Assembly: GCA_949358305.1 (NCBI GenBank)
Contig: OX442318.1
Coordinates: forward strand, 3,954,501-4,018,500
DNA length: 64,000 nucleotides
Source of the DNA: Strigamia acuminata
Lineage: Eukaryota; Arthropoda; Chilopoda; Geophilomorpha; Linotaeniidae
Direction of reading: 5' to 3'
The notes beneath the pieces are model-generated. The model did no database searches and was not told where the DNA came from. It was given only the letters and a program-made list of their open reading frames with translations. Made by a program: the position numbers and the translations under genes. Positions 11,927 through 64,000 of this stretch are shown in pieces. Positions within the stretch are counted from its first letter, which is position 1, and every line of letters starts with the position of its first letter.

Positions 11927-12205
11927 TTAGTTTTTGACACTCTTTTTGTTTCTTTTGTGGACGAATGAGAGTGTATTAGAAAATACAAAATGGATTGCAG
12001 TTAAAACAGAAAGGCCAAGAGTGAGACCAAAGGTGTTGGCAATGTCAGAAACTAAAGCCACAAAAGAATATTTAAATTCTTTTGCAATAGTTTCGATTTT
12101 ATTGGTGGGGAAAACAACAGCAGATGTTGTGTAATATAATCGAAAAGTAGGGAAACTGTGGTCATTGATTTTGTAGAATGGTTGTTTACAAGGTGGTACA
12201 CACAA
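11927..12205 (-). pseudogene. DEG/ENaC channel last-exon fragment (copy A)
   Basis: The minus strand encodes the end of a DEG/ENaC (pickpocket-like) channel: a Cys-rich CVPPC...FYKIN motif, the pre-TM2 stretch, the pore/TM2 segment with the G-L-S selectivity-filter triplet (LTLGLSVLT), and a basic tail to the stop. It closely matches the last exon of the gene at 15281-19092. Homology stops abruptly at about 12205, in the middle of the ECLCVPPC motif. No upstream exons are found before the mariner element and the intergenic block. I therefore call it a truncated pseudogene. The family makes amiloride-type sodium channels in the plasma membrane; this fragment alone cannot form one. Confidence 0.8.
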
Positions 12206-15280: not shown

Positions 15281-18200
15281 TTAGTTTTTGACACTCTTAT
15301 TCTTTTTTTTGTGGACAAATGGAAGTGTATTAGAAAATACGAAATGGATTGCAGTTAAAACAGAAAGGCCAAGAGTGAGACTAAAGGTGTTGGCAATGTC
15401 AGAAACTAGGGCCACAAAAGAATATTTAAATTCTTCGGCAATAGTTTCGATTTTATTGGTGGGGAAAGCAGCAACAATTGTTGTGTAATCTGATAAATAA
15501 GCAGGGAAACTGAATTCATTGATTTTGTAAAATGGTTGTTCACAAGGTGGTACGCACAAACATTCCTTTTCAACATCAGTTGTGGTGTGCATTTCATAAT
15601 ACAATGTTTGCACTGCTTTGGCTGTTGTTGAAGAGTTGCAGAAGGCGACGTTTTCCTTGATTGCATATGGCATACTATTAAATAAAGAAAATGAATAATT
15701 TAAAAAGTCTACTGCCATCCTTCTTTGTGTTTTCGAATTTACCTGCACAATTGTTTGCTGTTAACTTTATTTTCTAGGCATTGGCCTTTACACTTGTAAT
15801 ATTCCGTTAAATTTCCATTGCACGGTTTGGTGTTGGTGTTTAGTCGATTTATCTAAAAGTTGATTTTAAGAAAAAAATATTAAACATAGTTTCTAGTTCA
15901 CGTAAAGTTATAATTATTTTGGAAAAATGCGAGGCAAGAATTCAAAATAAACACATTTAGTCTACTAAGCGAAGCAATTGTAGTCATATTAGATGGTACA
16001 ACATAATTTAAATGATAAGACAAATTAGGGTCTTCTGTAGGAGTGATGTAAACCTGAAATTAAAATGATTACAATATACAAGTAGCCGAAATCATTCACT
16101 CGAGGTACAGACATGTAAGAAATCTGGGTTGCAAGGATTTGGCTTAACTTTAACACCATCAATATAACTTGTGTACATTTGATATTTTATTGGACCTGTA
16201 GTGATAAATAGTTGGAGTTTTTTATTTGTTTCTGGCTGCTGAGTTATTAATTACCAAAAGCATGTTTCACACAAGTTCCTTGTGGATTAGAGAGGCTAGT
16301 ATATGTCCGAACATCAAATAGTGTAGTAGGAAATGGAGTCTGAAAAATATGAAATGCAAAAATATGAAATTCAGAAATTTTTCAGAAAAAATTTAAGCAA
16401 AGATTTATATTTGCTTCGATAATCTCTGATAATTACGTATGTGTCAGAGGTAAACATTAATATAAGAATGTACTTACAAATAACTTGAATATTTGTGGAG
16501 GTAGTGGTTCTACATAAGCTATTTTCCACAGTTTTTCCACAGTAAAATTTTTCCAATTGACAAGCTCCAATAAGTCTACATGGCATTTTGTATTGTTTTG
16601 CTTCTGCTCTTTGAAATACTTTAACTTATAAAATAGAAGTTTTGGATTAAATGCCCCTGTGCAAGTGATAATATTAGGGAAAGTCACATTAACTGGATCT
16701 TCTATTGAAACAGTCATTTGAATAACTTTATTCATATATAGTGATATTTTTTTCTGAACCAAAAATACACTAAACCCAAACAAGCAAACATATGTCAGGA
16801 AATATAACATTTGCTTCCAAGGTAGGTTTTTAGGCATTTGACTTGAATCTGAGGTTCGACAGGCTTTTAAGCAAGCTTCAATTCTTCTGGTAAAGTTATC
16901 TTTCTTCGGTAATTTTACTTTATTCCAACTTGCAACAGTCAAAACCAAATTAACGATAGAAAGTAAAGAGAGTCCCAACCAAAGTCCGAGATTTCCACCA
17001 AAGTCGGACAGCAGACTGATCAAATCATAAATCAAGCGTTCTTTCAGAACTGTTATATGATTGTTAACGTAAAGGGTGACTTCAGATAAGTTGTCATTGT
17101 GTTTTTCCAATTCGAATTTAGGATTAATATCTATAGTTTCACAACTTCTTGTACAACCACAGTCGACTTGTGGAGTTGGCCCAATAATACTGTAAATGTT
17201 TTCTCTGTACATTGCTAAAGTTTCTTTTGAATTGTTGCAGAGCTGAAGGAGCTTTCCATAGGAATGTTTTGGCCTGTAGGGTGGCCTGTTAATTATTAAT
17301 ACGAAACAAATAACACAATCATATAATTTTATAAAATCATGTTCCTCCTCCATCTTTCATTATTCACTTACCAACATGGGTTTTTGTCTAAAATTGTTTC
17401 CATGCATTTTTTACCGCAATCAATGTAATCTTTCATTTCTACGCAAGGAACGTTTCTTGTGTTAATAAACTGATGCTGAAAGAAAACTTACTTCAGTTCA
17501 AATATACAAAATTTTAAATATTACAGAAGAGTTGGTATTTGGCTGCCAAATTCCATTTTATTATTGTTTTTACTTGTTGAGTTTATTTGTGTGCACAGAG
17601 TAATTTCTCAGTTAGATTTTGACATCTGGATACCAATTAGAGACTATAAAAACTTTTTTTACCATTCTAAAACGCAGTCCAAGTTTTACGTTGGTAGATG
17701 ATGGTGTGATAATTGCGAATTGAAAATCTAATGGCAATGACCATGCTACCTACAATTAAATTGATGAGGACATGAGTTTGCCAAAGGATACTAGTGGGTT
17801 ATAAAAGTTAAAGTAATTGAATTATAACCTTATTTTATGAAATAAAATTCACTGCAAGTGTGGTTTCTTATAATTTTGCTAACATGGTGCGTGACCTATT
17901 TTTTCATTCTGAGTTTAATATAATTCACATCGTATTAATCTCAGAATTAAGTTAAGCTCTTTACTGTTATTGTCCCTTGTGAATGTAGGTTTAGCTCATT
18001 GTGTATTCACTTCTTTCGAATTAAAAGTATTTTAGCTTACAAGGGTTTGAGATCTTCCTGGAAACAATTCCGGTATTTGCAAGAGTGCAGTAATTTTTGT
18101 ATTTAATTTTGATCCACTCATTGCACTGACAACTGAAATTGAAAGGTAAATTTTTATTTTAAGTCATATGCAAAAGAAAAATTTAGTTTTAGCTCACCTT

Positions 18201-19092
18201 CTATTTTTGTACAAGTTCCCATAGAAAAAAGTTGCTGATTGGTTCGTATGTCCATAGGAATGTGTACCTAAATGACAACTGAGGATATAAATTGTTGAAA
18301 ATCGTTGGAGGAAAAACACAGATTGTTTAAGATTCAAAACGTTTATTCCATTTGCACTCGTATCGCACAACCTGCACGTGTTGCTGGTGGAACCGGAAGT
18401 CACCAAGCCTCGTTCTGGGTCGTGAGATTACAGAACATCTCTTTCTGGCGGGAGAAATCCTCGCCTGGGATTTGCACATTAGATCAAGGTGATACCAAAT
18501 AAAACAACATCAGTTATTCGTTGTTGCTACAGTATCGGTTGGCTACTACTATTTAAATCCATTAAAAACTTAATTTTGTATGTCGTCTCGTATCATATGC
18601 ATATAGGTTTTGAACAACATGAAGACTGTAGTTTACATTCCAAACTTTAGTAAGATCTGCATCAGTGGCAGTTATAAGTCGGTCCAATGGGAGCATAGAA
18701 GCAGATAAATCTACACTTTCAGCGTGTGATTTATAGTAATCCAACACATATTCATTTAGTGGAACACATATGTGTACACTGGGTAACTTGTACATTTTAA
18801 GCTTTTCCTCATACACATCAACGGCTTTTGGGTTTTCCAGATAATAAGCTATACGATCATAGGTTTGATAAGTGTAGACGAGAATGCAGACAATGACAAG
18901 AAGAGTCCAAAAGAAACGAAATGCAAACGAATTATTTTTATCAATCATTGGCTGGAACTCTTGAGGGATATTTTTTTCTCTTTCTATCATTGGCTGGAAC
19001 TCTTGAGGGATATTTTTTTCTCTTTCTAGTCGTCTGAAAATATCTTTTACTGCTCGTGTAAGTCTCACACGGGACCTTTGGTTAATTCTCAT
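15281..19092 (-). CDS. Double-domain DEG/ENaC channel, copy B (11 exons, one damaged donor)
   Basis: Minus-strand exons traced by eye: 18574-19092, 18198-18267, 18041-18132, 17663-17749, 17372-17475, 16478-17285, 16255-16339, 16113-16195, 15955-16053, 15743-15852 and 15281-15674. Joined they give 2451 bp, 816 codons plus stop. Domain 1 has TM1 (FFWTLLVIVCILVYTY), the CVEMKDYIDCGKKC and CGCTRSC cysteine motifs, and TM2 with FGGNLGLWLGLSLLS. A short basic linker follows, then a second TM1 (MLYFLTYVCLFGFSVFLV), VTFPNIITC, CLCVPPC, and a second TM2 (SLTLGLSVLT). Two full ASC domains therefore sit in one chain. The expected role is a cation channel subunit in the plasma membrane. The donor of exon 1 reads TT where the intact copy has GT, and exon 1 carries an in-frame 45-bp duplication, so this copy may be dying. 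Confidence 0.72.
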
Positions 19093-21182: not shown

Positions 21183-21522
21183 TGTAAAAACTGGGAGTTT
21201 TAGAAGTCTCGAGGTCGCACAGAATCGAAGGAAATGGAGGATGCGTCGTGCAGTGAAGTCGACATCGAGGAGGTGTTTTACGGTTGAGAAGCGATGACGC
21301 GGATTCGTGGAACCGGAAATACGTCGTAGTGTCATAATTTGTCATAATCCTTTTTTTTGTCCTTGTTTTGTATTTTGTGAACCCCGAATAAATCAGTGTA
21401 ATTTCCAATTTACCACGTGCAGCATGTCTTGATTTTTTGGTCAATTTCAATCCAGTTCGATCGTAAGTTTTTGATGCAGTTTTGTCAAATATCAGCGTGC
21501 AGATCTCTTTTGAACTTTCAAA
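21183..21522 (+). repeat. BEL/Pao 5' LTR
   Basis: 340 bp, starting TGTAAAAACTGGGAG and ending GAACTTTCAAA. The end was fixed by the match with the right LTR and by the target duplication. It contains an AATAAA signal near 21388. Confidence 0.92.
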
Positions 21523-21540
21523 TGGTGCCGAAACCCGGGA
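21523..21540 (+). other. Primer binding site, tRNA-Phe
   Basis: TGGTGCCGAAACCCGGGA is the exact complement of the 3' end of eukaryotic cytosolic tRNA-Phe (TCCCGGGTTTCGGCA plus CCA). It lies directly after the LTR. Confidence 0.85.
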
Positions 21541-21665
21541 ATTAGTTTGAATCCGGATAGAAAAAGCAGCGAGATCTGTCTTGCGAAGCCGACCGCGTTG
21601 AGCCTTTTCTCGACAAAACGGACTTGCGAAGCCGACCACGTTGAGCCTTTCTCGACAAAGGCAAT

Positions 21666-24600: not shown

Positions 24601-26870
24601 AAATCTTTGATCCGCTAGGATTTGCGTCGCCTTTCACAGTCTCCGGAAAACTGTTTTATCAACAGCTGTGGAAACAACGAATAGAGTGGGATAGCCACTT
24701 GTCAGTCGAATTCCTCAATCAGTGGAAAAAATGGAAAGTCCAATTACCATTATTGGAGCAGATTAGAGTGCCAAGACATTTTGGCGTAGACGCGAACTTG
24801 GACAATCAGGAGATCCATCTTTTCTGTGATGCTAGTCCACTGGCATATGGGGTGGTGGCGTACAATCGCGTGCGCTACCCAGACGGAAATTGTAAAGTTT
24901 ACTTTATTCTTTCTAAATGCAGAATAGCCCCCATTAAAACGATAACGCTGCCCAGACTCGAATTGATGGGAGCTTTGCTTTTGGCTAGAGTCGCTAAAAG
25001 GTTGAGCCAATTCTCGACCGCGAAAGTCACAGCTTGGACAGACTCAACTATCGTTTTATGTTGGCTAAGAGAGAAGAAAAAGGCAATTCCATTCGTAGCT
25101 CGAAGAGTGGAAGAGATCCAATCGCAAGGGCCATTCTCAAATTGGCGTCATTGTCCGGGAGTTCAGAATCCCTCGGACCTTCTAACTAGAGGTATAGATG
25201 CAGAGACGTTAATTCAAGCAAGAGAGTGGTGGAATGGACCCGAGTGGCTCGTGGAAAACGAGAATGCGTGGCCAACTAGTTCGTCAGATGCAGTCGATGA
25301 AGAAATCGAAACAGAAGAGTTTTCCGGAGTTACAGTTACAGTTGCGGAATTGCATTTGATGGAAGAGCCATCAAGATTTGGCAGTTGGAAACGATTAATT
25401 CGAATCACCGGGTGGATGAAAAGATTCATCAACAATAGCAGAGGGAAAATTCGCAATGGTGATCCTCTAACAGTAGACGAGCTACTGGAGGCTGAGCTTT
25501 ATTGGATTCGTGTGATTCAACAAGAGAATTATGCGACAGAATTGACAGCAGTAAATCGTCAGCAAGAGTTTAATCACGATTCCATTTTAAGAAATGTGTC
25601 ATGTTATTTGGATGAAAGTAGTTTGATACGATTAAACACGAGACTTAGATGGGCTAAGGTCAATAAGAATTTGATAAACCCATATGTTTTGTCCGCGAAC
25701 CATGCGTTGACCAGTCTTGTGGTCTGGGAAGCGCATCAGAGAGTTTTCCACGGAGGACTCGGTGAGACTTTGGCTGAAATCCGACAACGATTTTGGATGC
25801 CAAAGTTGAGAAAAACAGTAAAGAACATTTTAAGTCGATGTTTCGTGTGTAAGCGAGTACAGGGACGATTCATATAACAGACTGAGTCGTCCTTGCCCCC
25901 AGATAGAGTTACTCAGACCGAACCTTTCCAAATAGTTGGAATCGACTTCGCAGGTCCGCTGTATCAGCGCAGCGGAGAGAAATGTTACATAGCTGTATTC
26001 ACGTGCGCAGTAGTCAGAGCTGTGCATTTAGAATTAGTATCGAGTATGAATACAGAGAAATTCATTCAGGCTTTGAAGAGGTTTTTTGCGAGACGAGGTG
26101 TCCCGAGTACAATTTACTCCGACAACGCATTAACTTTTAAGCGTACAGAAAAGGAACTCAGCCTTTTATTGAAAGCAGTGAAAGGTGAAGAAATGCAAGG
26201 CTTTCTCACTGAACGAAAAATCAGATGGCGTTACATAGTCGAACGTGCGCCATGGTGGGGTGGTTTTTGGGAGCGGATGGTGAAGTCAACTAAGTCTAGT
26301 TTGAAGAAAGTTTTAGGGAAATCGTCTCTTGACTTTGAAGAGTTGACAACGATTCTCGCAGAAGTGGAATCGTGCATTAATTCACGTCCGCTCTCATATG
26401 TCTACACCGAAGATGAAGACAGTCACCCGTTGACGCCTGGGCATTTCCTAGTCGGTGGGCGGAGCTGCAATTTGCCGGATCCTGGCCAGCGAACGATCCA
26501 GCCATTGTCATCAAATTCCGTTGCTATTCTAAAGAGATGGAAGTTACGGCAGTTAAAGTTAGGACATTGGTGGTCGCAATGGCAGAGAGAGTATCTCACT
26601 GAGTTGCGAGTCCATAGGAAGAACGATAAGAGTTCTCGTGAAGTGCAGTCCGGTGATGTGGTTTTAATAGAAGAGTTAAACCAACCCCGAATGATCTGGA
26701 AGGTTGGCAGAGTCGTAGAAGTATTTCACGGGCGCGACGGGCGAGTACGAGCTTGTGAATTAAAGTTAGCAACTGGAAAGAATTTACGACGACCAGTTCA
26801 GAGGTTGTGCGTTTTGGAAGCGCACGATGTAGAAGAAGCGAGTGGCGATACCACTCCGGCCCCAGTGTAA
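21666..26870 (+). pseudogene. BEL/Pao Gag-Pol polyprotein with one in-frame stop
   Basis: The start ATG is at 21666. Domains in order: gag region related to DUF1759 (about residues 120-290); zinc-knuckle cysteines (about 350-415); a retropepsin with the D-G-G-S-H site (about 455-470); reverse transcriptase with DIKQAFHQ and YVDD (YVDD near residue 878); RNase H with FCDASPLAYG (about 1055); the integrase zinc finger (about 1355-1400). A TAA at 25875-25877 then interrupts the chain. The same frame continues through the integrase core (GIDFAGP, YSDNALTF, WERMVKS) and a DUF5641-like tail to the stop at 26868-26870, which lies inside the right LTR. Apart from this nonsense codon the frame is open over about 1730 codons. 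In this copy integrase is cut off from the rest unless the stop is read through. Confidence 0.9.
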
Positions 26871-27205
26871 AAACTGGGAGTTTTAGAAGTCTCGAGGTCG
26901 CACAGAATCGAAGGAAATGAAGGATGCGTCGTGCAGTGAAGTCGACATCGAGGAGGTGTTTTACGGTTGAGAAGCGATGACGCGGATTCGTGGAACCGGA
27001 AATACGTCGTAGTGTCATAATTTGTCATAATCCTTTTTTTTGTCCTTGTTTTGTATTTTGTGAACCCCGAATAAATCAGTGTAATTTCCAATTTACCACG
27101 TGCAGCATGTCTTGATTTTTTGGTCAATTTCAATCCAGTTCGATCGTAAGTTTTTGATGCAGTTTTGTCAAATATCAGCGTGCAGATCTCTTTTGAACTT
27201 TCAAA
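26866..27205 (+). repeat. BEL/Pao 3' LTR
   Basis: 340 bp, differing from the left LTR by one base in the GAAATGGAGG/GAAATGAAGG stretch. It is followed by the GATCT target duplication. Confidence 0.92.
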
Positions 27206-28334: not shown

Positions 28335-29450
28335 GGTACTGCGCACTTTTGATTTCTTTGTTTCTAAAAGCTGATTGATGTATTACTTTCCGTTCTATTT
28401 TATGTATTACGCATAAAAGTGAACCAAACTTACATTTTCGTTTGTTGGTTAAGCTGCAAATGCGAGTACGAACATCTTACCAACGTCGAAACGTGACCGA
28501 TTTCATCACTACGAATCAGTCACGTCGTAAAAAACTGCACCGGAAATCCGGTATGGAGACACAGACATGTAAGGATCACCCTGTTTTTAGCGATGCTGAT
28601 TTGGGAAAAAAGTGCGCTTTAGAATCGAAGAAATACGGTACTTTCAAATATAATTGCTTCAATTTTTGAAATTAAATTATCTGCTTGGAGCAAGCAATTT
28701 TGAAAATTAAAATAGAAATTGCAGACGATTATTGACTCTTATAAATTTTTTTTTTTTTTTTAAAAGTTGAAGCCTTACCTTTAATTTTTTTGTCCTGAGG
28801 TTGTCTTGTGATGTAAATTTCAATAGCTAAATTTCCTGATTGCTTGATTTGTGTAAAATATTACAATTTGTCATTTGGGAATTTTCTTCTGATCGTTCAC
28901 ATTTGTTCTAATCATTTCGTCTCGTTTATTCGGATAAATTGAGTCACTTCTCTTGAACCAAACACAAACACACACGTTATGTTGGTTGGAGACTTTATTA
29001 ATTCTGTCAAAGCTGACCCATGGGTCTTTAAATACACATATTCACCCAATTAAATAGCTCTGATTACAGAGCCAATCAAATATTTCGAGTTTAAAAATAC
29101 CAATCAATTAAATGTAAATAAAACAAAACTTCTCAAGTTTTCACAATTTGTTTTCCTTTAACGATAAGTTGCATTTTACTAAGTCGATGGTTCTCTGCAA
29201 CTTCGTAGTTGGAAATTTTGCTGTATCTTCAACGGTTTATAAAGTTCAAAATGGATAACTTTGAAAATTACTTTACAAATTCAAATTTCAGATTATTATC
29301 GGGTAGCCCACAATTATTATTATTATTATTTGTTCCGAGTCTGTTACGCCCAGACTCGGTGAATTATTTTTATGCATTATACCACAATAGTTGATTTTTA
29401 TTTTTCAGCCGTCTAGGCTAGGTGACCCTTGACGCTGTGTTTGTTTGTGT
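28335..29450. other. No gene seen; contains a remnant of the intergenic block
   Basis: 28640-28800 resembles the duplicated block at 13790-13960 (CAAGCAATTT..., T-run, AAAGTTGAAGC). An open frame at 28442-28669 has no recognisable homologue. The rest is A+T-rich with no supported feature. Confidence 0.5.
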
Positions 29451-29452
29451 GT

Positions 29453-30373
29453 GTTGGTCTTCTTCCGCTATTAAATGTTTTACTATTGTGCGAATTCTTT
29501 TTCGGATTTGATGATTAGCCATGACACTGTAAAACATTATTATTATTAATACATATATAACGAATCGGGATATAATGAATTATCGATATAACGAATACCT
29601 AATAATGGCCGGTTTGGTTGGCTGGTCATTGAACACCATGTTAAAAAATTTCGATATAACGAATTCTCGTTATAATGAATCGAATTTTTGGGTTCCTTGC
29701 GATTCGTTATAAATAGTTTCGACTCTATACTTCGTTCCGGTATAACGTTGTCCTATTTCCGAGCCGGAATTGCGCCTAGCTTTCGACTGTGCTCTACTAA
29801 GCGGAAAAGTAGTTTCGTGTCAAAGTATCACTTTTGTGTTGGTAATCGATCACAATGTCTGGAGTCTGATAACAATTCTGGTAACAATTCTGGTGTTTTG
29901 AACTAATTTTTTGTGCCACTACACCAGTGATAAGGCTGGAATTAGGACAATGTTATATCGGAACGAAGTATACCGTAGTTGCTGAGCTAGACTTAAAGTT
30001 TTGGATTTCTGCTGACATAAATACGCTTGATACGAAGCATGGCAAATATAATGTTGCAATGACACGAAAGTTTATTAAAAATATTTAAAAAAAAATTATG
30101 GTATAAATTATAATTTTTCATTTAAGTTGTCGGTGGTGCAGTTTTCATGGAATTTGAAATAGTACGTCGTAGCTACTGCAGCAGTAAAATTATTGTTAAT
30201 TATACACTACAATAACTAAATAATAAATTCATTTTTTTTAAGCTAAACAGAAATTTTTTGTTCTTAAAGTAAAAAGTTTTATCTGAACACAATTAAGCTT
30301 ACCTCTTCTCCAACTGCTGTGGATTATCTTGTGTTAATGCTGAACTGCTCTGTCCACAATCAGTCGCCATCAT
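29453..30373 (-). pseudogene. 5' fragment of a double DEG/ENaC channel gene (copy F)
   Basis: A candidate first exon at 30303-30373 reads from two ATGs through 23 codons to a GTAAGC donor. After an intron of about 0.8 kb, the exon-1 start (29453-29526) follows an acceptor TTTTACAG and encodes MANHQIRKRIRTIVKHLIAEE. That is almost the same as the start of copy C (MANHRIRKRIRTIVKHLIAEE). The two exons join in phase (2 bases plus 1). Homology breaks near 29453, before TM1, so no channel can be made. Copy C has the same 71-bp upstream exon at 39188-39258, so this fragment and its intron are a duplication of the 5' end of C or its ancestor. Confidence 0.6.
29726..29971. mobile_element. Short inverted-repeat element (MITE), 246 bp
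   Basis: TATACTTCGTTCCGGTATAA at the left is matched by the complement of TTATATCGGAACGAAGTATA at the right. The inverted homology runs about 32 bp to GTCCTA. The ends begin with TA. The TATAACGA-type words resemble ends of pogo/Tigger-like elements. It lies in the intron of channel fragment F, and there is no coding capacity. Confidence 0.7.
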
Positions 30374-31360
30374 TGATAGTGTGTTGACCACACTATGTAG
30401 AAGAAAGTATTTGTGTGAGCAATAATGTGAGAATAAAACAGATGTTTATTGGCCATGTAGAAGTACAATTTTCTAATTATAATTATAAGTAAGTCATAAA
30501 CAGAACTTCTAAATGGACTTTTTTTAATACATGAATGTTAAAGATGTATGAAATGAAAACAACAACTGCAATTTGGGTTATTATTTGCGAACTATAAAAT
30601 GCTTTCATTTCTTTTTTATTGCCAATTACCGGTAATTTATAGTTCACTCTGAAATTAGTCGCAATCCTCCAAATTACATTTTCGTGTATTGATAAAATAT
30701 AAAACGTAACAAGTTTTTTTGGTTTTTCATTAAATGGTGAAATGACTTTGAAACGTGAACTTGCAGCTAATAGTTTCTGCTATTTTTCTTGCAAGTTTAT
30801 TGATATTACACGCGTATTATCGCATTAAGAATTTTTCCCGCCAAAAGAAGCCATCTAGCGGCGAATGCAATTACCACTATGTATATCTTGAATCCAGCAA
30901 CAGCCATTCCGAGGATTTCCACGAACCTAGACTCACTCGCAAACACTACTATGGTGATCGCCAGGTGGCGGCGCACATGCTGCAAGGTCATATGTACAGG
31001 ACTACGTCAGGTGCGACCTTGCAGCAGCTGATCACTTATTTAACGTGCTTGGTGACGCTAACATCTGTGTCCTCCTTTCAATAGCACGACAACAACTTTG
31101 CACGTAATTTTGTTAATTAAATCCACTACCAACCGGATTGAACGTGACATACTCATGTATTACTCGTACTTGCTGTGTTTGTACTTGTGCATGAATTGCT
31201 GTCTCACTAATTTAAACAAGCATTAAATTATTCGTGATTTTGTAATAATTGCGTTAAATCTTTTTAGGGACCTGTGGAAAATTTTTGAAACATTAAGTGC
31301 GCCGCGAAAAGAAAAAGGTTGGGAACCACTGGTTTAGCTGATTATGAAAATAAAGAATTG
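30374..31360. repeat. Intergenic sequence with R3 copy (30735-30910)
   Basis: 30374-30460 continues the duplication with 39260-39330 (GTGTGTTGACCACACTA). The R3 block at 30735-30910 matches 27230-27400. An open frame at 30755-31084 lies on R3 and is not conserved, so I do not call it a gene. Confidence 0.5.
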
Positions 31361-34300
31361 TTACAATTTTGTTTGTGGGTTTAGGTGATTGACAAGAATT
31401 GTTGCAGATTTGTAAAAAAAATGTATTCCAGTTAAGACGGACAAACCGAGAGTGAGACTGAGTGTGTTGCCGATGTCAGAAACTAAGGCAACAAAAGAAT
31501 ATTTAAATTCTTCAACAATTGTTTCTATCTTGTTTGACGGGAAAACAAAATTAACGAATGTCGAATCAAATATCATTGGTGGTGCACTGAATTCATTGAT
31601 CTTGTAGAACGCTTGTTTACAAGGACGATGGCACAAACATTCCTTCTGAACATTGGTGTTGGTGCGTATTTCGTAGTACAATGTTCGCACGGCTTTGGCT
31701 GTTGACGAAGAATTGCAGAAAGTGAGGTCTTTCTTGAATGCAAATGGCATGCTATTGGATGAATAAAATGAGAAATTAAAATTAGGGTGAAGTTGTTACA
31801 TACTTGTGTGGGTTATTGTTTTACCTGCACAGTTGTTTACTCTTCATTTTGTTTTCCAAACAGTGGCTTTTACAGATGTAATAGTCTGTTGTGTTTTGAT
31901 TGCAGCGTTTGGGTTTTGTGTTGAGATAATGCATCTGAAGTTTAAATATATTTTAAGAGTTTCCAAGAACAAATTCTTGTTGTTGAAATTTATCTTTATA
32001 CATTTTGTTTGGTAAGCAAAGATGAGGTTAGCATTGAAGAAGAGAGCACTGAATTGAAATCGTATGAAAAATTGGGATCTTCAACTGGTGTGATATAAGC
32101 CTATTGAAAAAATGTGCAAGTTTAGATTGTGTGGATTATTTTGAACTTACGTATATAAAATCCGGTTTGCATGAGGGGTCTTTCATTTCTGGTGTATAAT
32201 CCACAAACATTGTGAAAAATCGATATTTTACAGGACCTAATTTCAAATATACACTTTAAAATTTTGTTTTTATCTCTTTAGAAGAATAAAAAATTACCGA
32301 AGGAATGTTTAACACAAGTGCCGTGTGGATTTGGGAGTCGAGTGTAGGTTCGCACATCAAATATGTCTCCGGAAAATGGATTCTGCAAATTTTAAAGCCA
32401 AGAAATAGAAATGCCAGCTAAAAAAAAATCGAGTTTCAATTGGTAAATTTACTTACAACTGTTTGGAGTATGCTAGATTCTAAAGGTTGAACATAAGCCA
32501 TTTTCCACAGTTTAGGTACTGTTAATCCGTTCCAGTTGACGAGATCCAATAAGTCTACATTGCATTTTGTGTTATTTTGATTCTGCTGTTTGAAATATTT
32601 GGTTTTCTGCTTTATTAGTTTTCCATTATGCGGTCCTGCACAGATGATGATGTTTGGAAAAGTTATGTTAGCTGAATCCTCAATTGCTACAATTGTTTGA
32701 ATGGGTTCATTCAAATACAGTTGAATTCTTTGTTGGATTATAAATCCGCTGAATACAAACAAACAAAGATAAACCAGTGGCTGCAGACGAGCCATGTTAG
32801 ATGTGTGACTTTTTGGTGTTTTAATAGTTTGTATGTTAGCTTCAATTCTTCTGGTTATGTCGCCTTTGGGAGTTATACGCTTCGCCATGTACCACTGAGC
32901 AATAACCAAAATTAGGTCGATTAAGGAGAGAAGTGAGAGTCCTAACCAAAGTCCAAGATTGCCGCCAAAATCTGAGACCAGGCTGATGAAATCGTAGATT
33001 AAGCATTCTTTCAAAGTTGTCACGTGGTTGTCAAGCAGGTATATACTATTTGAAGATATGTCACTTTCGCTACGTTCCATCCGAAATGTGGGATGAACAT
33101 GTGTAATTTCACAGCTCCTGATACAACCACAGTCAGGTTCAGGTGTTGGTGATACCACATCATTCAAGTTTTGTTCAACCATTTTTAAAGTTTCTGCAGA
33201 ATTATTACAGAGCTCAAGGTGATGTCCTCTGGAAAATCTTGGCATGTAGGGTAACCTGTCAAATATATTAAGATACCACTCGAAGATTTTTAAGGAAAAT
33301 TAAGACAGTGTGCAACATCACAGTCATCTTGATCATACTCTATGGAGGAACGGAATACCATGTTCACACCAACGGATCAAGTTTGGCTGGATCTGATTCG
33401 CCCGATCAGATCCAACTGAACAGAGTTCCCAGTATTCACTTTGTGATATTGTAATATACAGATTGGCCGCCTGATGGCGTAAATGAGAGTGTGAGATTAC
33501 TTGGATTGTAACCTGTGTCCGAGAGGGCATTCTGGTATTGTAAGCGAACGAATAAACAACATGTCTTTCCCCGAGCTCGCGAGTTATTGCGTTTATTGCG
33601 AACATTACACACTTGGATTGGAGTTGTGTTCACACTAAAATGTGATTGAAACAAACCAGTTGTAGTAGCAACAATGGCTGCCATTTCATATCGAATAAAA
33701 ATGCACAACAATGGGATGCTACAAAGTGCTGACATTGTTTTTTGAATTCCAATTCGTAAATCGAGTTGTGGGAACTCGATTGACGAACGAAGTTGTTGGG
33801 CACAAGGATCTAGATCCCTGAACAGAGTTCAGTGTTCACACCAATCTTGCATCTAGATCCGCAGCTTCGGATGAGATCCAAAAGCGTAGTATGAACATGG
33901 TATTAGGCCTACCGTAGTTTGTCGGTTTGAGGAACAATTGTGGTAAATGCTACAAATTGGAACAATTGTGTTAAATGCTACAAATTGGAACAATTGTGTT
34001 AAATGCTACAAATTGGAACAATTGTGTTAAATGCTACAAATTGTATTGTTTTTTCTTGGCAGTGCGAATTGTTGGAAACTTATAAAACAAGCTCTTTTGA
34101 AAGTGCATTTGGTCTTTTATTGTTTACAATAAATGTATTTCGTAATTCACTTGCCAACAATGATTTTTGCCCATTAATGTTTCAGTGCATCTTTTCCCAC
34201 ATTCTATGTATTCCTCGAGTGGTACACAGGGCTGACTTGTGGTGTCTATTAAATGATGCTGAAACATAAATATTTAGTAAGTCAATAACAGAATCCACCT

Positions 34301-37300
34301 GAACAAATTTAATAGCCACCTCTTTTAAACGTAATCCAACTTTGGTATTCGTTGTTGCTGATGTTATCGCATATCCATATTGGAAATCCAATGGGTATGT
34401 CACTCCTATCTGAAATTAAGCATGTTGAAGTCATCAGTTGTGAATTCAATAAAATTATTCACTTATTGTCATTGGCTGGTTGTTTTGCCAGGCCCGTTTC
34501 TGGCGTATTGTGCGATTTTTTGTTTTTGTTTTTGCAGCAGGGAATTTGGAGGGAGTTTTTCTCTTTCTGAGTTTTAGAAATTTGTGATTTTGGATTCATG
34601 GTTTTGGATTGGTGTTGAGGGTTTGGGGCAGGGGGCGGATTAAACTTTTAGAGGGCCCCAGAAAAATCTTTTTCTAGGTCTCTAACATTGGATTTCCCAG
34701 CGTAACAATGGATTTCCCAGCGTAACATTGGTTTTTCTGGCTTAATATTTGTATTTCTCTGGCCTAAAATAAGATTTTCTGGCCTGAAATTGGATTTTCG
34801 GGCCTGAAATTGGACTTTCGGGCCTGAAATTGGATTTTCGGGCCTGAAATTGGATTTTCGGGCCCGAAATTGGATTTTCGGGCCTGAAATTGAATTTTCG
34901 AGCCCGAAATTGGATTTTCGGGCTTGAAATTGAATTTTCGGGTTTGAAATTGGATTTTCCGGCCTGAATTTGGATTTTCCGGCCTGAAATGGGATTTTCC
35001 GGCCTGAAATGGGATTTTCCGGCCTGAAATGGGATTTTCCGGCCTGAAATGGGATTTTCCGGCCTGAAATGGGATTTTCCGGCCTGAAATGGGATTTTCG
35101 GGCCTTAAATGGGATTTTCCGGCCTGAAATGGGATTTTCGGGCCTGAAATGGGATTTTCCAGCCTGAAATTGGATTTTCCGGCCTGAAATTGGATTTTCC
35201 GGCCTGAAATGGGATTTTCCGGCCTGAAATGGGATTTTCCGGCCTGAAATTGGATTTTCCGGCCTGAAATTGGATTTTTCGGCCTGAAATTGGATTTTCC
35301 GGCCTGAAATTGGATTTTCCGGCCTGAAATTGGATTTTCCGGCCTGAAATTGGATTTTCCGGCCTGAAATTGGATTTTCTGGCCTGAAATTGGATTTTCT
35401 GGCCTGAAATTGGATTTTCTGGCTTAAAATTGGATTTTTTTGCTTTAATTTTTTTTTGGTTCAATATCTAACTGAAACAAAGCAGTTATAAATATTTACA
35501 AAAAGGAGAGACCAATGCTGGAACTCGGAAGGAAAGAGTATTTACTAGGGTTAGGGATTGTCCTGGTATCAATTCTGGTATTTTAAAATCGTGTTGAAAT
35601 CTTGTACTCATTTCAGAACCATGCAGTATATTTCTCACTGTAATTGAAAGCTGAACGTAACTTATTTAAAAATATCTACAATTAATTCTGGCAACTGACC
35701 TTTCAATTTGGTACAAGTACCTCTTGGCATTAATTCCAATGTCAGAGTGTAGTTCAGAGGAAAGGGTGTCTGAAATTACAATAGAAGAGGTTTACATTAA
35801 ATATTAACGAATAGTCACAAACTGAGAAAAATTTATTGGCAGATTTGTGCCAAATGGATGATCCATAAACATGTGACGGTTATAAACCCGTATGTAACAA
35901 TGTTCACACTAGATGGCGCTGTTTAAATAACGCGCGCAGTTTAAACTCAAGAAAGTTGAAAGTTATGATAAATCATTACTTAGAGAAGATGAATAAAATA
36001 TAAATATTTTATTAAAACATAATTAAATATTACTTACTTAAAGATATTGATTCTAATGAATCAATATCAAGTTTACTTACCTTTCGAGGGGAACCAATCG
36101 GGCCCTTCTTGACCCAATTCCATATGAGGTCCGAACCCAGTCTTATATTAGGTCCGGACTAGTAATCCACGAATCCGTCGATTCATGCACCCGATTGGCT
36201 GTCGCCAATCTGATTGTTCTCAAGAACTATATAAGCTCTGGTTTTCCAACCAGTTCCCCCCTTGGCTTGATAACTGAATATGTCTATATCGTCTGTAGTT
36301 AAAATTGTTGTTATCGTTTGATCTCACTTTCTCTATCGACACATCAGGCCTCTTCAGCTCTCCACAATTACCGTCTTCCCCCGAATACAACACCATGGTG
36401 TTGTATTCGTCAAATTCCATGCAAGTTTGGAAAAAAAGAAAATTGTTAATTTTTTCTTGAAAACTGTGATTAAAAAACCAACAATATCTTGTATGTTTTT
36501 TTTTTTGTGTGTTTTATTTAAAGTAACAAAAACAACAATAAAAATAAACTAAATGAAAACGAACGTGTGCTGTTTCGGTAGCGTTTTGGAAGCGTACACT
36601 GTACGTCTTTCACAGTTTTCTACAAATTCGAATATAACACCATGGTGTTGTAGCTGAAGTGGTGTTATATTCGAATTTTTGCTCAATGTTTGCAAACTTG
36701 CGATTTTGAACAAAACTCGAATACAACACCATGGTGTTATATTCGGGGGAAGACGGTAATATTAATACTATATTGTTATTGTTGTTGTAGGGCTATTTCG
36801 GGAAGGCTAACTCCGGTAATAGACATGTTAAATACATGAAATGGCCCCATAACGTTAGCTTGCTGTTCTAAGGGACAGTTAGAGTTTGTACGGTAGCATA
36901 GTGTGTCATCCATGCACGGGATGATTAACCTGTTAAACAAATACCCATCTCATGATCGGTGATAGTCGCATCTATCTGAGCGATTCCTCGGACATAGGTC
37001 AGATGCTCTGCCAGAGCACGTGCGCGGGAGGTCCCACCCGAGCACGAAACAAACATGGACAACTGTCTTCTCAGGGCGAATTGCTTAACATAGGTCCTTC
37101 CGTGCTCTAGTGGTCGGTAAAGAGCGTATTTACAGGTAGATACGCCGGGATAGTAGCCTGTGAGCGGTATACAAGAAATACTGTGCTAAACAACTACTCG
37201 GGTATTGGTAATCCTGTCTTGCTAACCCCATAATAATATTTACCCGGTGGTTGGTACCACCGATAGCGACTTGTCGTTAACAAACAAATACTCGGCGCCT

Positions 37301-38340
37301 GATCACGAGATCTTGTCGTCGTAAGGCATGCTGGCGGATGGAGCCTCAACAACTCCCGCGATGGTCCTCTCGCCCGTCGTGACTGTCCCCGCCCAAATAA
37401 TAATAATATAACAATAAATTGTTATATCCCACTAATAATCTTTTATTCATTGATCCGGGAATATTCTAAAGAATACTCCTAACAAATGCGAAGGACTCTT
37501 CGCATTATTAGATATTCGTGCTGCGGACCAAATACGTTTCCGTAGCGTTATTTGTGACGATGCCGCAAGTCAGCCGTATCCCTCTGGCTTCACCCGGACC
37601 CTCAACCAGTTGATGCCATGCGTTTACACGCGCTCAGAACCCTTATCCAAATTGTTATTATGATTAATAAACATATTATGTCACACAAAACCGTAAGTTG
37701 TTTCTATTCGATCACATATTCACGATACACAGAATTCCGTAGCTTATCTCAGTTAGGTTGTTGTTAGCTTTAACAACGTTTTGTTCAAACCGATTTATCT
37801 CTCTTAAATAGTTAATAAATTAGCTAAAAAGTAGAATCGTCACAAACATCCAATTATAAACTTACTTTGCGATGTGTTTCTGCATATGCAAGTACACGCT
37901 GAGTTATATGGAAACTGTAGTTGAAATTCCATAATTGAGTGAGATCAACATCTGGTCGTGTTATTAATTTATCCAAAGGATTCAGAGCATCTGTCTGAAG
38001 TATTTCTTCTCCGAGCACCTTGTAGAAATCCACAACATACTTATTTAGTGGTATACATGTGTGTGAATCAGGAACTGGCAACTCTTCAATTTCTCTTTCG
38101 TAGACGTCGAGTCCTTTTGGACTGGTCAGATAATAAGAAATGCGGTCATACATTTGGTACGAATAGATGAGAATGCAGATGACGACAAGAAGAGCCCACA
38201 AAACACGAAATACAATATTTCGTTTTTTATCGATCATTGGGTGAAATTCTTGAGGGAATGCGCTTCTTTGGTCTTCTTCAGCTATTAAATGTTTTACTAT
38301 TGTGCGAATTCTTTTTCGGATTCGATGATTAGCCATGACA
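31361..38340 (-). CDS. Double-domain DEG/ENaC (pickpocket-like) channel, copy C, complete
   Basis: Minus-strand exons: 37866-38340 (ATG at 38336), 35700-35769, 35546-35637, 34299-34409, 34155-34258, 32457-33255, 32298-32382, 32151-32236, 32002-32100, 31825-31934 and 31361-31751. The coding total is 2418 bp (805 aa) with no stop. Domain 1: TM1 (VLWALLVVICILIYSYQMY, about 48-66), CVPLEEYIECGKRC, CGCIRSC, TM2 with FGGNLGLWLGLSLLS (about 379-393). Linker of about 45 residues. Domain 2: TM3 (PLVYLCLFVFSGFIIQQ, about 441-458), ITFPNIIICAG (about 480-490), CLCHRPC, TM4 with LSLTLGLSVLT (about 774-784). The family forms trimeric sodium channels from two-TM subunits, whereas this chain has four TMs and both ends inside. 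The donor after exon 5 is GC instead of GT. Introns hold a minisatellite, a MITE and a putative LTR. Confidence 0.82.
33353..33907. mobile_element. Putative inverted-repeat DNA element in an intron of copy C
   Basis: GAATACCATGTTCACACCA at the left pairs with the complement of TATGAACATGGTATTA at the right (about 17 bp, two mismatches). Both subterminal regions hold GGATC-rich words (GGATCTGATTCGCCCGATCA; GGATCTAGATCC). No clear target duplication and no transposase are visible. Confidence 0.5.
33936..34043. repeat. Tandem repeat, 28-bp unit, 4 copies
   Basis: GAACAATTGTGTTAAATGCT plus ACAAATTG repeats four times with one base change. It lies in the intron between exons 5 and 6 of copy C. 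Confidence 0.92.
34770..35440. repeat. Minisatellite, 20-bp unit, about 33 copies
   Basis: The unit GGCCTGAAATTGGATTTTCC repeats with single-base variants (AAATT/AAATG, TTTCC/TTTCG) that cluster in blocks. It lies in the intron between exons 3 and 4 of copy C. The long minus-strand open frame over it is a by-product of the repeat, not a gene. Confidence 0.97.
35872..37844 (+). repeat. Putative solo LTR (about 1.6 kb plus an inserted MITE)
   Basis: Ends TGTGACGGTT and AATCGTCACA are imperfect inverted repeats. The flanks are AACA on both sides (35868-35871 and 37845-37848), a 4-bp duplication. A TATA box (CTATATAAGCTC) lies near 36222. It sits in intron 1 of channel copy C, in the opposite orientation to that gene. 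Its left part resembles the minus-strand LTR at 9193-10850. No coding frame is visible. Confidence 0.5.
36371..36756. mobile_element. MITE with palindromic terminal repeats, 386 bp
   Basis: CCGTCTTCCCCCGAATACAA at the left and its complement at the right form inverted ends of about 40 bp with one mismatch, flanked by TA on each side. Each end itself contains a near-perfect palindrome centred on ACACCATGGTGT, and a third palindrome of the same type sits at 36633-36680. No coding capacity. It is nested in the putative LTR at 35872-37844. Confidence 0.85.
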
Positions 38341-38389
38341 CTGTAAAACATTATTATTATTAATATATCGAAACTCTTTGTAACGAATA

Positions 38390-38505
38390 GCAATATAACG
38401 AATAGTGATATAACGAATAGTGATATAACGAATAGCGATATAACGAATAGCGATATAACGAATAGCGATATAACGAATAGCGATATAACGAATTATCGAT
38501 ATAAC
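38390..38505. repeat. Minisatellite, 15-bp unit, about 8 copies
   Basis: GATATAACGAATAGC repeats next to the 5' end of channel copy C exon 1. The related segment near fragment F (29560-29600) has only one or two units, so this is a local expansion. Confidence 0.92.
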
Positions 38506-38530
38506 GAATACCTAATGGCCGGTTTTGTTC

Positions 38531-42617: not shown

Positions 42618-43434
42618 TGTGGTGACCCCGCGGGTGGTCGTCCCTCCAGTGGACGCCATCCGCATGAGTCACTAGGAAAGGTCAGTTCCCTCGCGTTGGC
42701 TCCGCCTTCCCCCCCTGGGAAGCGCGTGCCCCGAGGGGGTGAGGTGATGCGTGGACGGCCCCCATTGGCCGAGCCAGGCCCCTCACCCTGGCCTATATCA
42801 GGTAGAGTTTCGCGCCCTAAAAACAGAACTTACACAAACGACACCAAGAACACAGCAACTACCTCACCGTCAGGCCAACTCCACCAAAAGTTAGGATTGA
42901 TCGAGGACCGCTGATTCCAGTGCAACTGTAACTCTCACGAATTTACACTGTGTGTTATTTCCCCGCGAAAGCAGGAAAATAACCCTTGTGGATTCACACG
43001 AAATAATCGACCCACGATTATTTCCATTGCGAAGTGTCCGAGTGCCCTGTAAGAAACTCCCCGTTTCTGGACGGAGCCTTGCGACGCTAAAAACCAACCC
43101 TAGACAACAGGCACGGATAGAAGACTCGAAAGAGCATTCCACCGCGTCCGTGAACGACGAATCCGTGACAAATTAACGACAACTCGAGACGCCGCCTTTG
43201 TTCCGCCGACCACGCGGAACCGACGACGCCATCTTGGGAAATCCTTTGTTCGACTCTGACCAAGTCACTCTAGTTTTATACTGAGTGTATTTCAAGGCTT
43301 ACGCCTATTGAATAAACCTATTTGTTCATTTCAATATACTTAGTATTCATTTGGGTAATTTACATATTTAGTAGAATCACAGGTAAAGTAATACACGTTA
43401 GCTCATTAAACCTATCACCAGGTAGGACGCGACA
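42618..43434 (+). repeat. gypsy element 1 5' LTR
   Basis: 817 bp from TGTGGTGACCCCGCGG to GGACGCGACA. A TATA-like CCTATATCAGG lies near 42792 and an AATAAA near 43310. It is matched by 60587-61404. Confidence 0.93.
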
Positions 43435-43436
43435 CG

Positions 43437-43454
43437 TGGGGGCCCGTCCGGGAT
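43437..43454 (+). other. Primer binding site, tRNA-Pro
   Basis: TGGGGGCCCGTCCGGGAT, two bases after the LTR, differs by one base from the tRNA-Pro primer site TGGGGGCTCGTCCGGGAT known from gammaretroviruses. Confidence 0.85.
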
Positions 43455-43529
43455 TTAGAAATAAATCTCAACTGAACTTGTGATCTCTCATTTAATATAA
43501 TAACCCAAATTGAAGAATTACTCAAAGAA

Positions 43530-46500: not shown

Positions 46501-46649
46501 ACAGCTGTGGGGAATACGGCCATTATTCCGACAAATGCGAAAAAACGGCCAAAATCACTAGTGAAACGCAGACTATGATGAAGATGATGGCCGAGTTAAA
46601 TATCGCCCTGGCAAAAAACTGCCAAGCGCAGGCGTCGTCGAAGAAATAG
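43530..46649 (+). pseudogene. gypsy element 1 Gag, with an early stop codon
   Basis: The first ATG of the frame is at 43530. A TGA at 43659-43661 stops it after 43 codons, and the same frame is then open from 43662 to 46649, including an ATG at 43755 that could give 964 aa. The protein has a charged, Glu/Arg-rich probable coiled coil (about residues 130-330 of the 43755 frame) and a low-complexity basic/acidic region. A retrotransposon gag domain follows (WQHYVQTRFDGSW to YYASLPPEE, about 560-730), and near the C-terminus a CCHC knuckle, CYSCGEYGHYSDKC. Gag forms the particle and binds RNA. It is unusually long for gypsy Gag. The early stop is probably a recent mutation because the reading before it is gag-like. 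Confidence 0.85.
46613..46619 (+). promoter_or_regulatory. -1 ribosomal frameshift heptamer A AAA AAC
   Basis: AAAAAAC lies in the correct phase of the gag frame (A at 46613, AAA 46614-46616, AAC 46617-46619), 28 bases before the gag stop TAG (46647-46649). After a -1 slip the ribosome enters the pol frame, which is open through 47803. This is the classic X XXY YYZ retroviral signal. Confidence 0.8.
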
Positions 46650-48797: not shown

Positions 48798-48798
48798 A

Positions 48799-54052: not shown

Positions 54053-54065
54053 GGAATGAGATAAT

Positions 54066-60550: not shown

Positions 60551-60574
60551 TCGCCCCGATCGATGATCGAAGCT

Positions 60575-61446: not shown

Positions 61447-61736
61447 AAAACACACACGTGTATATCAGGAATCTTGAATTCTTCCATCTTCTTTTCCGTG
61501 ACATCGAGAGATTTCGGGCAGGAGAGATAGTAGGATATGCGGCCATACATTTGGTACGAATAGATGAGAATGCAGATGACGATAAGAAGAGCCCAAAAAA
61601 CACGAAATTGAACGGTTGTTTTTTTGTCGATCATTGGTTGAAATTCTTGAGGTAAAGCTTTTATTCGGCCTTCTGCTGCCATTAAATTTTTTATTGTTTG
61701 ACAAAGTTTTTCACGGAATTGATGATTAGTTTCCAT
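61447..61736 (-). pseudogene. Truncated exon 1 of a DEG/ENaC channel gene (copy E)
   Basis: The minus strand reads METNHQFREKLCQTIKNLM, the conserved LPQEFQPMIDKK, TM1 (VFWALLIVICILIYSYQMY) and IPDIHVCV. This corresponds to residues 1 to about 95 of copy C. At about 61447 homology stops and the frame ends a few codons later. The sequence beyond is the tail of the BEL-like LTR and the gypsy element. On the far side (42329) lies a channel-gene 3' flank, so exons 2-11 of this copy are deleted. Confidence 0.75.
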
Positions 61737-63264: not shown

Positions 63265-64000
63265 TTACAAGTAAAGCTTATTGATAAATTTAGTAAGTAC
63301 AACTGCACAATTACATGAAAAATATATTGCCTCTAACACAGAGAGACCCAGTGTGAGGCCAAAAATGTTTGCAATATCAGAGACCAACGCAATAAACGAA
63401 TACTTAAATTCTTCAACAATAGTTTCTATCTTATTTGATGGAAAAACAAAATTGAAAGCTGATACATTGGGTGCCACTGGTGCAAAACTGAATTCATTGA
63501 TCTTGTAGATTGATTGTGTACAGGGCCGGTAGCACAAACATTCTTTTTCAACGTCGGTTCTTGTGCGTACATCATAGTACAATGTTCGCACGTCTTTGGC
63601 CGTTGCTGAAGAGTTGCAGAAAGTGACGTTTTTCTTAATTGCAAATGGCATGCTATTGGATGATTAAATAGAGAAATTAAAACAGTGGGAGTTGTTTATC
63701 CCATTGCATCACTACTGTTTTACCTGCACGATTGTTTGATCTTCATCTTATTGTCAAAACACTGACTTTTACAGTTGTGAAATTCTGTCGCATTTGGACT
63801 GCAATGTTTGCTTTTGGTGTTGAGGTAATGTATCTGGTTATCAATATCAAGTTTATAACAACAACGAATTGGTATTGGGTAATTGGTATTTACAGGGTAA
63901 TGATACACCTACGTTTTGTCTGGTCATCAGAACTGTAGTCGTCAATGAAGATGGTAAGGGAGCATGACAATCGGATGAGAAATTGGGATCTTCGATAGGA
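63265..64000 (-). CDS. DEG/ENaC channel, domain-2 exons (copy D, 5' part outside window)
   Basis: Exons on the minus strand: last exon 63265-63652, the exon before it 63724-63833 (110 bp as in copies B and C), and a partial exon from 63913 to the edge. They encode PIEDPNFS..., then CKSQCFDNKMKIKQSCR, then CNSSATAKDVRTLYYDVRT, CLCYRPC, FKYSFIALVSDI and the TM4 pore segment LTLGLSVLEAIYF. Lengths and phases match copies B and C exactly, and no stop or broken splice site is seen. By analogy this is the second channel domain of a double-domain protein. The first domain is outside the window. Confidence 0.75.

What the first reader, a model, noticed from the sequence alone, without database searches (positions are those of the whole stretch)
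31361..38340. A naturally concatenated DEG/ENaC channel: two complete channel domains in one reading frame
Seen: 11 exons join to 2418 bp without a stop. Exon 32457-33255 alone encodes, without interruption, the end of one channel (CGCIRSC, FGGNLGLWLGLSLLS pore/TM2) and the beginning of another (TM1, ITFPNIIICAG). Known: DEG/ENaC subunits have two membrane segments, with N- and C-termini inside, and assemble as trimers. Inference: a four-TM fused subunit would fix neighbour order and stoichiometry, since a trimer of single domains cannot be built from one double chain without a partner. I know of no described natural tandem subunit of this family.
Basis: partly seen in the sequence, partly recalled or inferred. 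Interest (0 to 1): 0.92.

Follow-up and report, generated by a model that had tools for sequence, protein, structure and literature searches.

The report
Double-subunit DEG/ENaC channels in a centipede-like genome
In this animal genome, probably a centipede's, two complete sodium-channel subunits are encoded head to tail in one gene, and the same fused design is found at more than two hundred places in the genome, although channels of this family are built from three separate subunits.

Summary
On the minus strand, 11 exons (38336-31361) join into a 798-aa protein with two DEG/ENaC (ASC) domains. One uninterrupted 799-nt exon carries the end of channel 1 and the start of channel 2. A second double gene lies at 19092-15281 with the same 11 exons and phases. 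In the 237.5-Mb genome I count at least 204 stop-free fused exons on nine contigs. The 45 closest all have a channel-1 first exon upstream and a channel-2 last exon downstream. In a tree of 76 segments, first and second domains each form one clade apart from single-type channels: one old fusion, then radiation. Second domains carry Asn/Ser where first domains and single-type channels have the lower-gate Gly (22/22, 33/33, 21/21). The centipede thermal receptor BRTNaC1 groups with two channels of this genome, so the host is probably a centipede. I propose that one chain supplies two neighbouring subunits of a trimer and another polypeptide the third. Expression, assembly and function are untested. 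Ten paper searches listed no natural tandem subunit of this family.

The parts
37866..38336 (-). Gene A exon 1: start, TM1 of channel domain 1, first part of its extracellular domain
   Evidence: homologous first exons genome-wide
35700..35769 (-). Gene A exon 2 (phase 0 to 1), GTC segment of domain 1
   Evidence: paralogue B
35546..35637 (-). Gene A exon 3 (phase 1 to 0)
   Evidence: boundary fixed by paralogue B exon 18132-18041
34320..34409 (-). Gene A exon 4 (phase 0 to 0)
34155..34258 (-). Gene A exon 5 (phase 0 to 2), non-canonical GC donor
   Evidence: GT donor at the same place in gene B
32457..33255 (-). Gene A exon 6, the fused exon: Cys-rich end and TM2/pore of domain 1, cytosolic linker, TM1 and start of domain 2
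32298..32382 (-). Gene A exon 7 (domain 2, phase 0 to 1)
32151..32236 (-). Gene A exon 8 (domain 2, phase 1 to 0)
32002..32100 (-). Gene A exon 9 (domain 2, phase 0 to 0)
31825..31934 (-). Gene A exon 10 (domain 2, phase 0 to 2)
31361..31751 (-). Gene A exon 11: end of domain 2 with TM2 (SDIGNTLSLTLGLS) and stop codon
39172..39345 (-). Upstream block, 84.6% like 30287-30468, ending in a GTAAGC donor: probable promoter/5' exon of gene A (inference)
15281..19092 (-). Gene B, second double gene (816 aa): exons 19092-18574, 18267-18198, 18132-18041, 17749-17663, 17475-17372, 17285-16478 (fused), 16339-16255, 16195-16113, 16053-15955, 15852-15743, 15674-15281. Exon 1 lacks a GT donor (TTAAGT)
63265..63999 (-). 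End of a third double gene D (domain 2, last three exons; the first of them cut by the window edge); its fused exon lies beyond the window at C6:4019164
11939..12205 (-). Partial copy of a domain-2 last exon; part of an 88% duplicate of 14939-15560
29448..29522 (-). Relict first-exon fragment of another copy; 30287-30468 is its upstream block
61449..61727 (-). Relict first-exon fragment of another copy, beside the Gypsy LTR

Best explanation
The gene encodes a natural double DEG/ENaC subunit: two channel domains (TM1, extracellular domain, TM2 each) joined by a cytosolic linker (37-52 residues in the 31 rows measured). It belongs to a family that arose once, when the last exon of one six-exon channel gene became fused to the first exon of a tandem neighbour, and that then radiated to at least 204 open fused exons. 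I propose that one chain places domains 1 and 2 side by side in a trimeric cation channel, and that the third position is filled by a domain of another polypeptide, most economically a single-domain subunit acting as common partner. Domain 1 would bring the canonical pore with a Gly lower gate, and domain 2 an altered gate (Asn/Ser) with an intact G-x-S filter, giving a built-in asymmetric pore. By kinship with the centipede thermal and acid receptors BRTNaC1 and PDPNaC1 and by its tandem radiation, the family is probably a sensory receptor repertoire. Shown: the fused DNA, its conservation, the single origin (on a short alignment), the domain asymmetry. Inferred: one protein from one mRNA (about 0.9), the 2+1 assembly (about 0.4), the sensory role (about 0.5).
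For: ASC hits above cut-off in both domains of A and of B, each domain alone. Five introns per domain with the same phases, at matching places. A second 11-exon copy in the window; A-B dN and dS 0.36 and 1.15 overall, 0.41 and 1.12 in D1, 0.29 and 1.17 in D2, 0.64 and 1.25 in the linker, NG86; all four indels in the fused exon are multiples of 3. Genome: 223 homologous places typed from three searches, 215 spanning TM2-linker-TM1, 204 of them stop-free. The 45 closest of the 144 matches all have an exon-1 match upstream and an exon-11 match downstream within 20 kb with none of the other 44 fused exons between (positions only, strands compared by eye). Three distant members at 27-40% identity show first exon, exon 5, fused exon and last exon in the same order within 5 kb. 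Pooled dN/dS over 100 close pairs: D1 0.48, linker 0.59, D2 0.37. D1-half and D2-half distances correlate at r 0.93, 0 of 2000 permutations as high, n 31. Tree of 76 rows: D1 one clade (98/67), D2 one clade (97/93), single-type channels apart, BRTNaC1 with L006/L023 (100/97). Gate residue: D1 33 of 33 Gly (31 distinct rows), single-type 21 of 21 Gly, D2 20 Asn + 2 Ser of 22; G-x-S filter in 33 of 33 D1 and 22 of 22 D2. PDPNaC1 is a homotrimer with gates at Asp372 and Gly375, analogous to Asp433/Gly436 of cASIC1a (PMC12714832: abstract start, passages, section 9).
Against: No transcript or protein evidence. Gene B has no GT donor after exon 1 (TTAAGT), and 11 of 215 spanning fused exons hold stops, so some copies are dead. 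Hydropathy of TM2 in domain 2 is low (1.38 in A, 1.59 in B, against 2.1-2.6 for TM1 and TM2 of domain 1 and 1.75-1.86 for TM1 of domain 2). The His-Gly motif before TM1 is missing in both domains of A and B. Hexamers like poly(A) signals lie in the linker of A (32825) and of B (16924), so shorter products are possible. The linker alone would stay stop-free by chance in 16% of neutral simulations. The tree rests on 107 columns with long branches, and the tool warns of few columns. The candidate single-domain partners were seen as last exons only, not read as whole genes. Nothing in sequence selects the 2+1 assembly over its rivals.
Confidence: 0.55

Rival explanations
1. Tethered twin channels: three double chains assemble, the three first domains forming one pore and the three second domains another, the linkers holding two trimers side by side.
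For: Uses every domain with no partner. Domains 1 and 2 each form a separate clade and differ at the gate residue, as expected if each met only its own kind. Domain 2 keeps the G-x-S filter in 22 of 22 rows read (the search pattern allowed S, C or A there).
Against: Not tested structurally; I did not look for a precedent of three Asn at the gate position.
Confidence: 0.2
2. Two double chains build one pore, with one of the four domains left out of a trimer, or as a tetramer of four domains.
For: PMC4529235 (passages read) reports functional trimeric and tetrameric ASIC1a concatemers and a predominant cross-linked tetramer, and itself offers the reading that only three of four linked subunits take part.
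Against: The two nearest solved relatives are trimers: PDPNaC1 has three subunits; the BRTNaC1 entries hold three chains each.
Confidence: 0.15
3. The domains work as separate subunits: alternative polyadenylation, an internal start (Met just before TM1 of domain 2) or cleavage of the linker releases single channels.
For: Poly(A)-like hexamers in the linker of A and B; a Met shortly before TM1 of domain 2 in A and B.
Against: No splice acceptor is conserved at 90% or more in the TM2-TM1 stretch of 31 rows. In A and B the frame is kept by whole-codon indels. 204 of 215 spanning exons are open, which a bicistronic use would not need. Such hexamers are near chance in AT-rich DNA (own estimate).
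Confidence: 0.1
4. Artefact or decay: assembly error, or a chance open frame between two neighbouring genes or pseudogenes.
For: Gene B's lost donor; 11 of 215 spanning exons hold stops.
Against: At least 204 open copies on nine contigs, purifying selection, no simulated fused exon stop-free at the A-B distance under neutrality.
Confidence: 0.02

Closest known systems
BRTNaC1 (broad-range thermal receptor 1, PDB 8YMR-8YMX), centipede DEG/ENaC
   Same: Nearest solved relative of both domains: D1 E 7.2e-19, D2 E 2.8e-11 aligned over 344 of its 389 residues. Its own relatives in this genome end soon after TM2 (L006, L023).
   Different: Single-domain subunit of 431 aa; the double family lies outside its clade.
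PDPNaC1 (PDB 9JF7), proton-gated centipede channel
   Same: Second nearest solved relative; sensory channel of antennal neurons, homotrimer, two TM helices per subunit (PMC12714832).
   Different: Single domain, 421 aa, nine exons; its Gly375 lower gate corresponds to Asn/Ser in domain 2.
ASIC/ENaC/pickpocket channels (Pfam PF00858)
   Same: Domain profile, Cys pattern and G-x-S filter.
   Different: Those have one domain per chain, as recalled; here there are two, and no His-Gly motif before TM1.
Engineered ASIC1a concatemers
   Same: Subunits joined in one chain; linked trimers and tetramers are functional (PMC4529235, passages).
   Different: Made in the laboratory from ASIC1a subunits; here natural, of two diverged domains, and at 204 or more places.
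Two-pore and four-domain channels (K2P, TPC, Nav/Cav; recalled, not searched as such)
   Same: Channel evolution by joining subunits in one chain.
   Different: Those repeat numbers divide evenly into a tetrameric pore; two domains do not divide a trimer.

Membership tests
DEG/ENaC (PF00858) | Pfam ASC profile above its gathering score, each domain alone | tested here: met
   A_D1 76.4, A_D2 69.5, B_D1 82.5, B_D2 49.1 bits; cut-off 23.6; best stretches cover part of the profile
DEG/ENaC (PF00858) | Two membrane helices flanking a large Cys-rich extracellular domain | tested here: inconclusive
   TM1 and TM2 of D1 and TM1 of D2 exceed hydropathy 1.6; TM2 of D2 peaks at 1.38 (A) and 1.59 (B). 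Spacing of the late Cys residues nearly the same in D1 and D2
DEG/ENaC (PF00858) | G/S-x-S selectivity filter in TM2 | tested here: met
   GLS in both domains of A and B; G-x-S in 33 of 33 D1 and 22 of 22 D2 rows, found with a pattern that fixed the G and allowed S, C or A
DEG/ENaC (PF00858) | His-Gly motif before TM1 (widespread rather than strictly defining; recalled) | tested here: not met
   No HG before TM1 in A_D1, A_D2, B_D1, B_D2
DEG/ENaC (PF00858) | Trimeric, amiloride-sensitive, Na+-permeable channel | not testable with these tools
   needs expression
Natural tandem (double) subunit | Two domains in one uninterrupted reading frame within one exon | tested here: met
   204 of 223 genome places span the junction stop-free
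Natural tandem (double) subunit | One mRNA and one protein | not testable with these tools
   no RNA or protein data at hand
BRTNaC1 subfamily | Falls within the BRTNaC1 clade | tested here: not met
   BRTNaC1 joins L006/L023 (100/97); D1 and D2 are separate clades

The most novel reading that the evidence does not exclude
A whole sensory receptor superfamily, with at least 204 open fused exons in one centipede-like genome, is built from natural double subunits of a trimeric channel. Each chain carries a canonical and a modified pore domain, so every receptor has a fixed, asymmetric pore, completed by a common single-domain partner (a co-receptor logic like Orco or IR25a) or working as tethered twin pores.
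Probability: 0.4. Interest if true: 0.95.

Novelty: new variant of a known kind. Interest (0 to 1): 0.9.

Why it matters
Channels of this family are trimers of one-domain subunits. A double subunit cannot tile a trimer by itself, so nature must have solved the mismatch with a partner, a spare domain or two linked pores; each answer would be new for this fold as far as I know. It offers a natural experiment on stoichiometry and asymmetric gating that until now needed engineered concatemers. And with more than 200 open copies of the fused exon it points to a large receptor repertoire, undescribed in the papers I could search, in an arthropod lineage where two characterised members of the fold sense heat and acid.

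Tried and rejected
Protein search of the spliced protein in the 5.8-billion set: no hit, apparently because animal channels are not held there. Structure prediction of the fused exon (two rows): mean pLDDT 34, unusable, not searched further. Rfam and tRNA scans of the window: nothing. Bacterial promoter and terminator scan of the linker: irrelevant. Triple fusions: none seen; the longest open frame around the 150 scored last-exon matches is 203 aa. An intron hidden in the fused exon: no AG conserved at 90%. Fusion of two unrelated genes: domains 1 and 2 share all five intron positions and phases. A first tally of the D1 gate residue (33 Gly, 2 Ser of 35) was wrong for two rows, L010 and L025, whose best match was the domain-2 exon; corrected. 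The same two rows were in the pooled dN/dS (their halves are the domain-2 exon; at most one close pair between them). The row L050 counted as D2 with Gly is a D1 exon cut by an in-frame stop and was moved before the D2 count and the tree. The D1 and D2 counts come from a motif pattern that leaves the gate position free; 9 of the 30 Pfam loci are not in the single-type count (7 gave no such row, L010 and L025 are double genes). A BRTNaC1 TM1 stretch found no first exon in loci L006 and L023, so their whole genes were not read. Ten paper searches listed no description of a natural tandem DEG/ENaC subunit; listings and abstract starts seen only, except PMC12714832 (passages and one section), PMC4529235 (passages) and PMC4244043 (passages). 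The library holds open-licence papers only.
Full report
The window. It is G000:C6:3954501-4018500 of a 237.5-Mb assembly in 157 contigs. The genome carries two single-type channels (L006, L023) that group with the centipede receptor BRTNaC1 at 100/97, and both domains of the gene here have BRTNaC1 and PDPNaC1, two channels of the centipede Scolopendra, as nearest solved relatives. C1 (67 Mb) is far longer than most other contigs listed. Strigamia maritima, a geophilomorph centipede, has an estimated genome of 290 Mb and one long and seven short chromosome pairs (passages read). I therefore think the host is a centipede, perhaps a geophilomorph; this is inference, no name was available.

Gene A. 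Eleven exons on the minus strand join to 2397 nt and 798 aa. Ten introns are needed: nine GT-AG and one GC-AG, at a place where the paralogue has GT-AG. The fused exon 33255-32457 holds the end of domain 1 and the start of domain 2 without interruption. The intron phases read 0,1,0,0,2 in domain 1 and again 0,1,0,0,2 in domain 2, and the two domains align so that all five introns fall together (read by eye from the alignment). They are 23% identical. So a six-exon channel gene was duplicated in tandem, and the last exon of one copy is now continuous with the first exon of the next.

Gene B and other copies in the window. Gene B (19092-15281) repeats all eleven exons and phases, 816 aa, 53% identical to A over aligned codons. 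The third exon of A, uncertain by itself, was settled by B. B lacks a GT after exon 1 (TTAAGT), so it may be damaged or use another donor. Between A and B the domains evolve under constraint (dN 0.41 and dS 1.12 in D1; 0.29 and 1.17 in D2), the linker less so (0.64 and 1.25 over 35 codons). The fused exon has four indels, all whole codons; neutral evolution left 0 of 4000 simulated exons open at that distance, though the linker alone would stay open in 16%. The D1 domains are 48% identical between A and B, the D2 domains of A, B and a third, partial copy 56-62%, while D1 against D2 gives 20-29%: the fusion is older than these duplications.

The family. With the fused exon as query, the genome gave 144 scored matches, 131 of them spanning TM2-linker-TM1 without a stop. 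Two further queries, from distant members, added new places. These searches scored only 144 to 146 of about 1500-1600 candidates each, so this is a lower bound; a few places are identical copies. For the 45 closest fused exons (48% identity or more; two of them with a stop), a first-exon match lies upstream and a last-exon match downstream within 20 kb with none of the other 44 between, in 45 of 45 (places; the script used positions, strands agree by eye). Three distant members were fetched and show first exon, exon 5, fused exon and last exon in the same order. Of 35 loci examined for a fused frame, 32 showed one under a pattern that asked for Gly-Gly; of the other three, L041 and L050 do have the exon (L050 with a stop) and L025 shows only the domain-2 exon.

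One origin, two kinds of domain. In a tree of 76 last-exon segments (107 columns, long branches, few columns for so many rows) all D1 rows form one side of a branch (98/67), all D2 rows another (97/93), and the single-type channels of the same genome stand apart. D1-half and D2-half distances of 31 fused exons correlate at 0.93, above all 2000 permutations. Domain 2 differs from domain 1 at one pore site in every row read: the second Gly of the D-x-G-G motif is Gly in 33 of 33 D1 rows (31 distinct) and 21 of 21 single-type rows, but Asn in 20 and Ser in 2 of 22 D2 rows. That Gly is the lower gate, Gly375, in PDPNaC1, analogous to Gly436 of cASIC1a (PMC12714832, section 9; the match of columns is by motif); the alignment of D2 to BRTNaC1 shows the same column.

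How it may work. Each chain should cross the membrane four times with both ends and the linker inside (inference from the family). A linker of 37-52 residues in the 31 rows measured is long enough to reach a neighbouring subunit (inference). Because three domains make a pore, one double chain needs a third domain. I think the most economical answer is a single-domain partner; of the 30 Pfam loci fetched, 21 are last exons whose frame stops 20 to 83 residues after the filter Ser and which fall outside the D1 and D2 clades, though I did not read those genes whole. Twin trimers from three chains, or two chains with a spare domain, are not excluded. Kinship with a thermal and an acid receptor, and the tandem radiation, suggest sensory receptors; that Strigamia's lineage-specific duplicates are enriched for sodium transport and taste terms (PMC4244043, passage) fits but does not name these genes.

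What stands against it. There is no RNA or protein evidence. Gene B's donor is broken and 11 of 215 spanning exons hold stops. TM2 of domain 2 is weakly hydrophobic (1.38, 1.59). The His-Gly motif is absent in A and B. Both A and B hold a poly(A)-like hexamer in the linker. The taxonomic breadth of the fusion is unknown, since no other myriapod genome could be searched here.

Verdict. The finding is confirmed and enlarged: a natural double DEG/ENaC subunit at the level of DNA, and a family of at least 204 such open fused exons that the tree derives from one fusion. The assembly and the function are open and directly testable. On checking this report against the calls I changed wording and counts, not odds.

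Noticed in passing
42618-61404: A large Gypsy-type LTR retrotransposon (LTRs 42618-43434 and 60587-61404, 99.6% alike) with GTTT on both sides, holding a nested Copia element (48479-54397, identical 319-bp LTRs).
   Followed up: partly
21183-27205: A BEL/Pao element with 99.7% identical LTRs and two long pol frames, between gene B and the relict at 29.5 kb.
   Followed up: partly
1-2228: Stretch 97.5% like 50694-48479 of the nested Copia element, in the opposite orientation.
   Followed up: no
34687-35438: 37.5 copies of a 20-bp unit inside an intron of gene A, open in several minus-strand frames.
   Followed up: no
38381-38510 and 29555-29626: 15-bp tandem units (TAACGAATAGCGATA) just upstream of first exons, in gene A and at the relict copy.
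   Followed up: no
30287-30468: Upstream block of the relict copy holds an ATG frame that could run into exon 1; in gene A the matching frame has stops, so A seems to have lost an N-terminal extension (read by eye).
   Followed up: partly
13028-13639: Minus-strand ORF with a DUF7769 hit (1.5e-11), possibly transposon-related.
   Followed up: no
32825 and 16924: Poly(A)-like hexamers in the linker of genes A and B; about chance expectation in AT-rich DNA by my estimate.
   Followed up: partly
L043, L044, L045: Three fused exons at C3:11014299, C6:2863754 and C6:2938079 encode identical proteins: very recent copies or assembly duplicates.
   Followed up: no
L006 and L023 (C6:3525127, 3527151): A pair of BRTNaC1-like single-type channel exons about 430 kb from the window on the same contig, 2 kb apart.
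   Followed up: partly
control genomes: PF00858 also rang in Thermotoga maritima among the 14 named control genomes; unexpected for an animal channel family.
   Followed up: no
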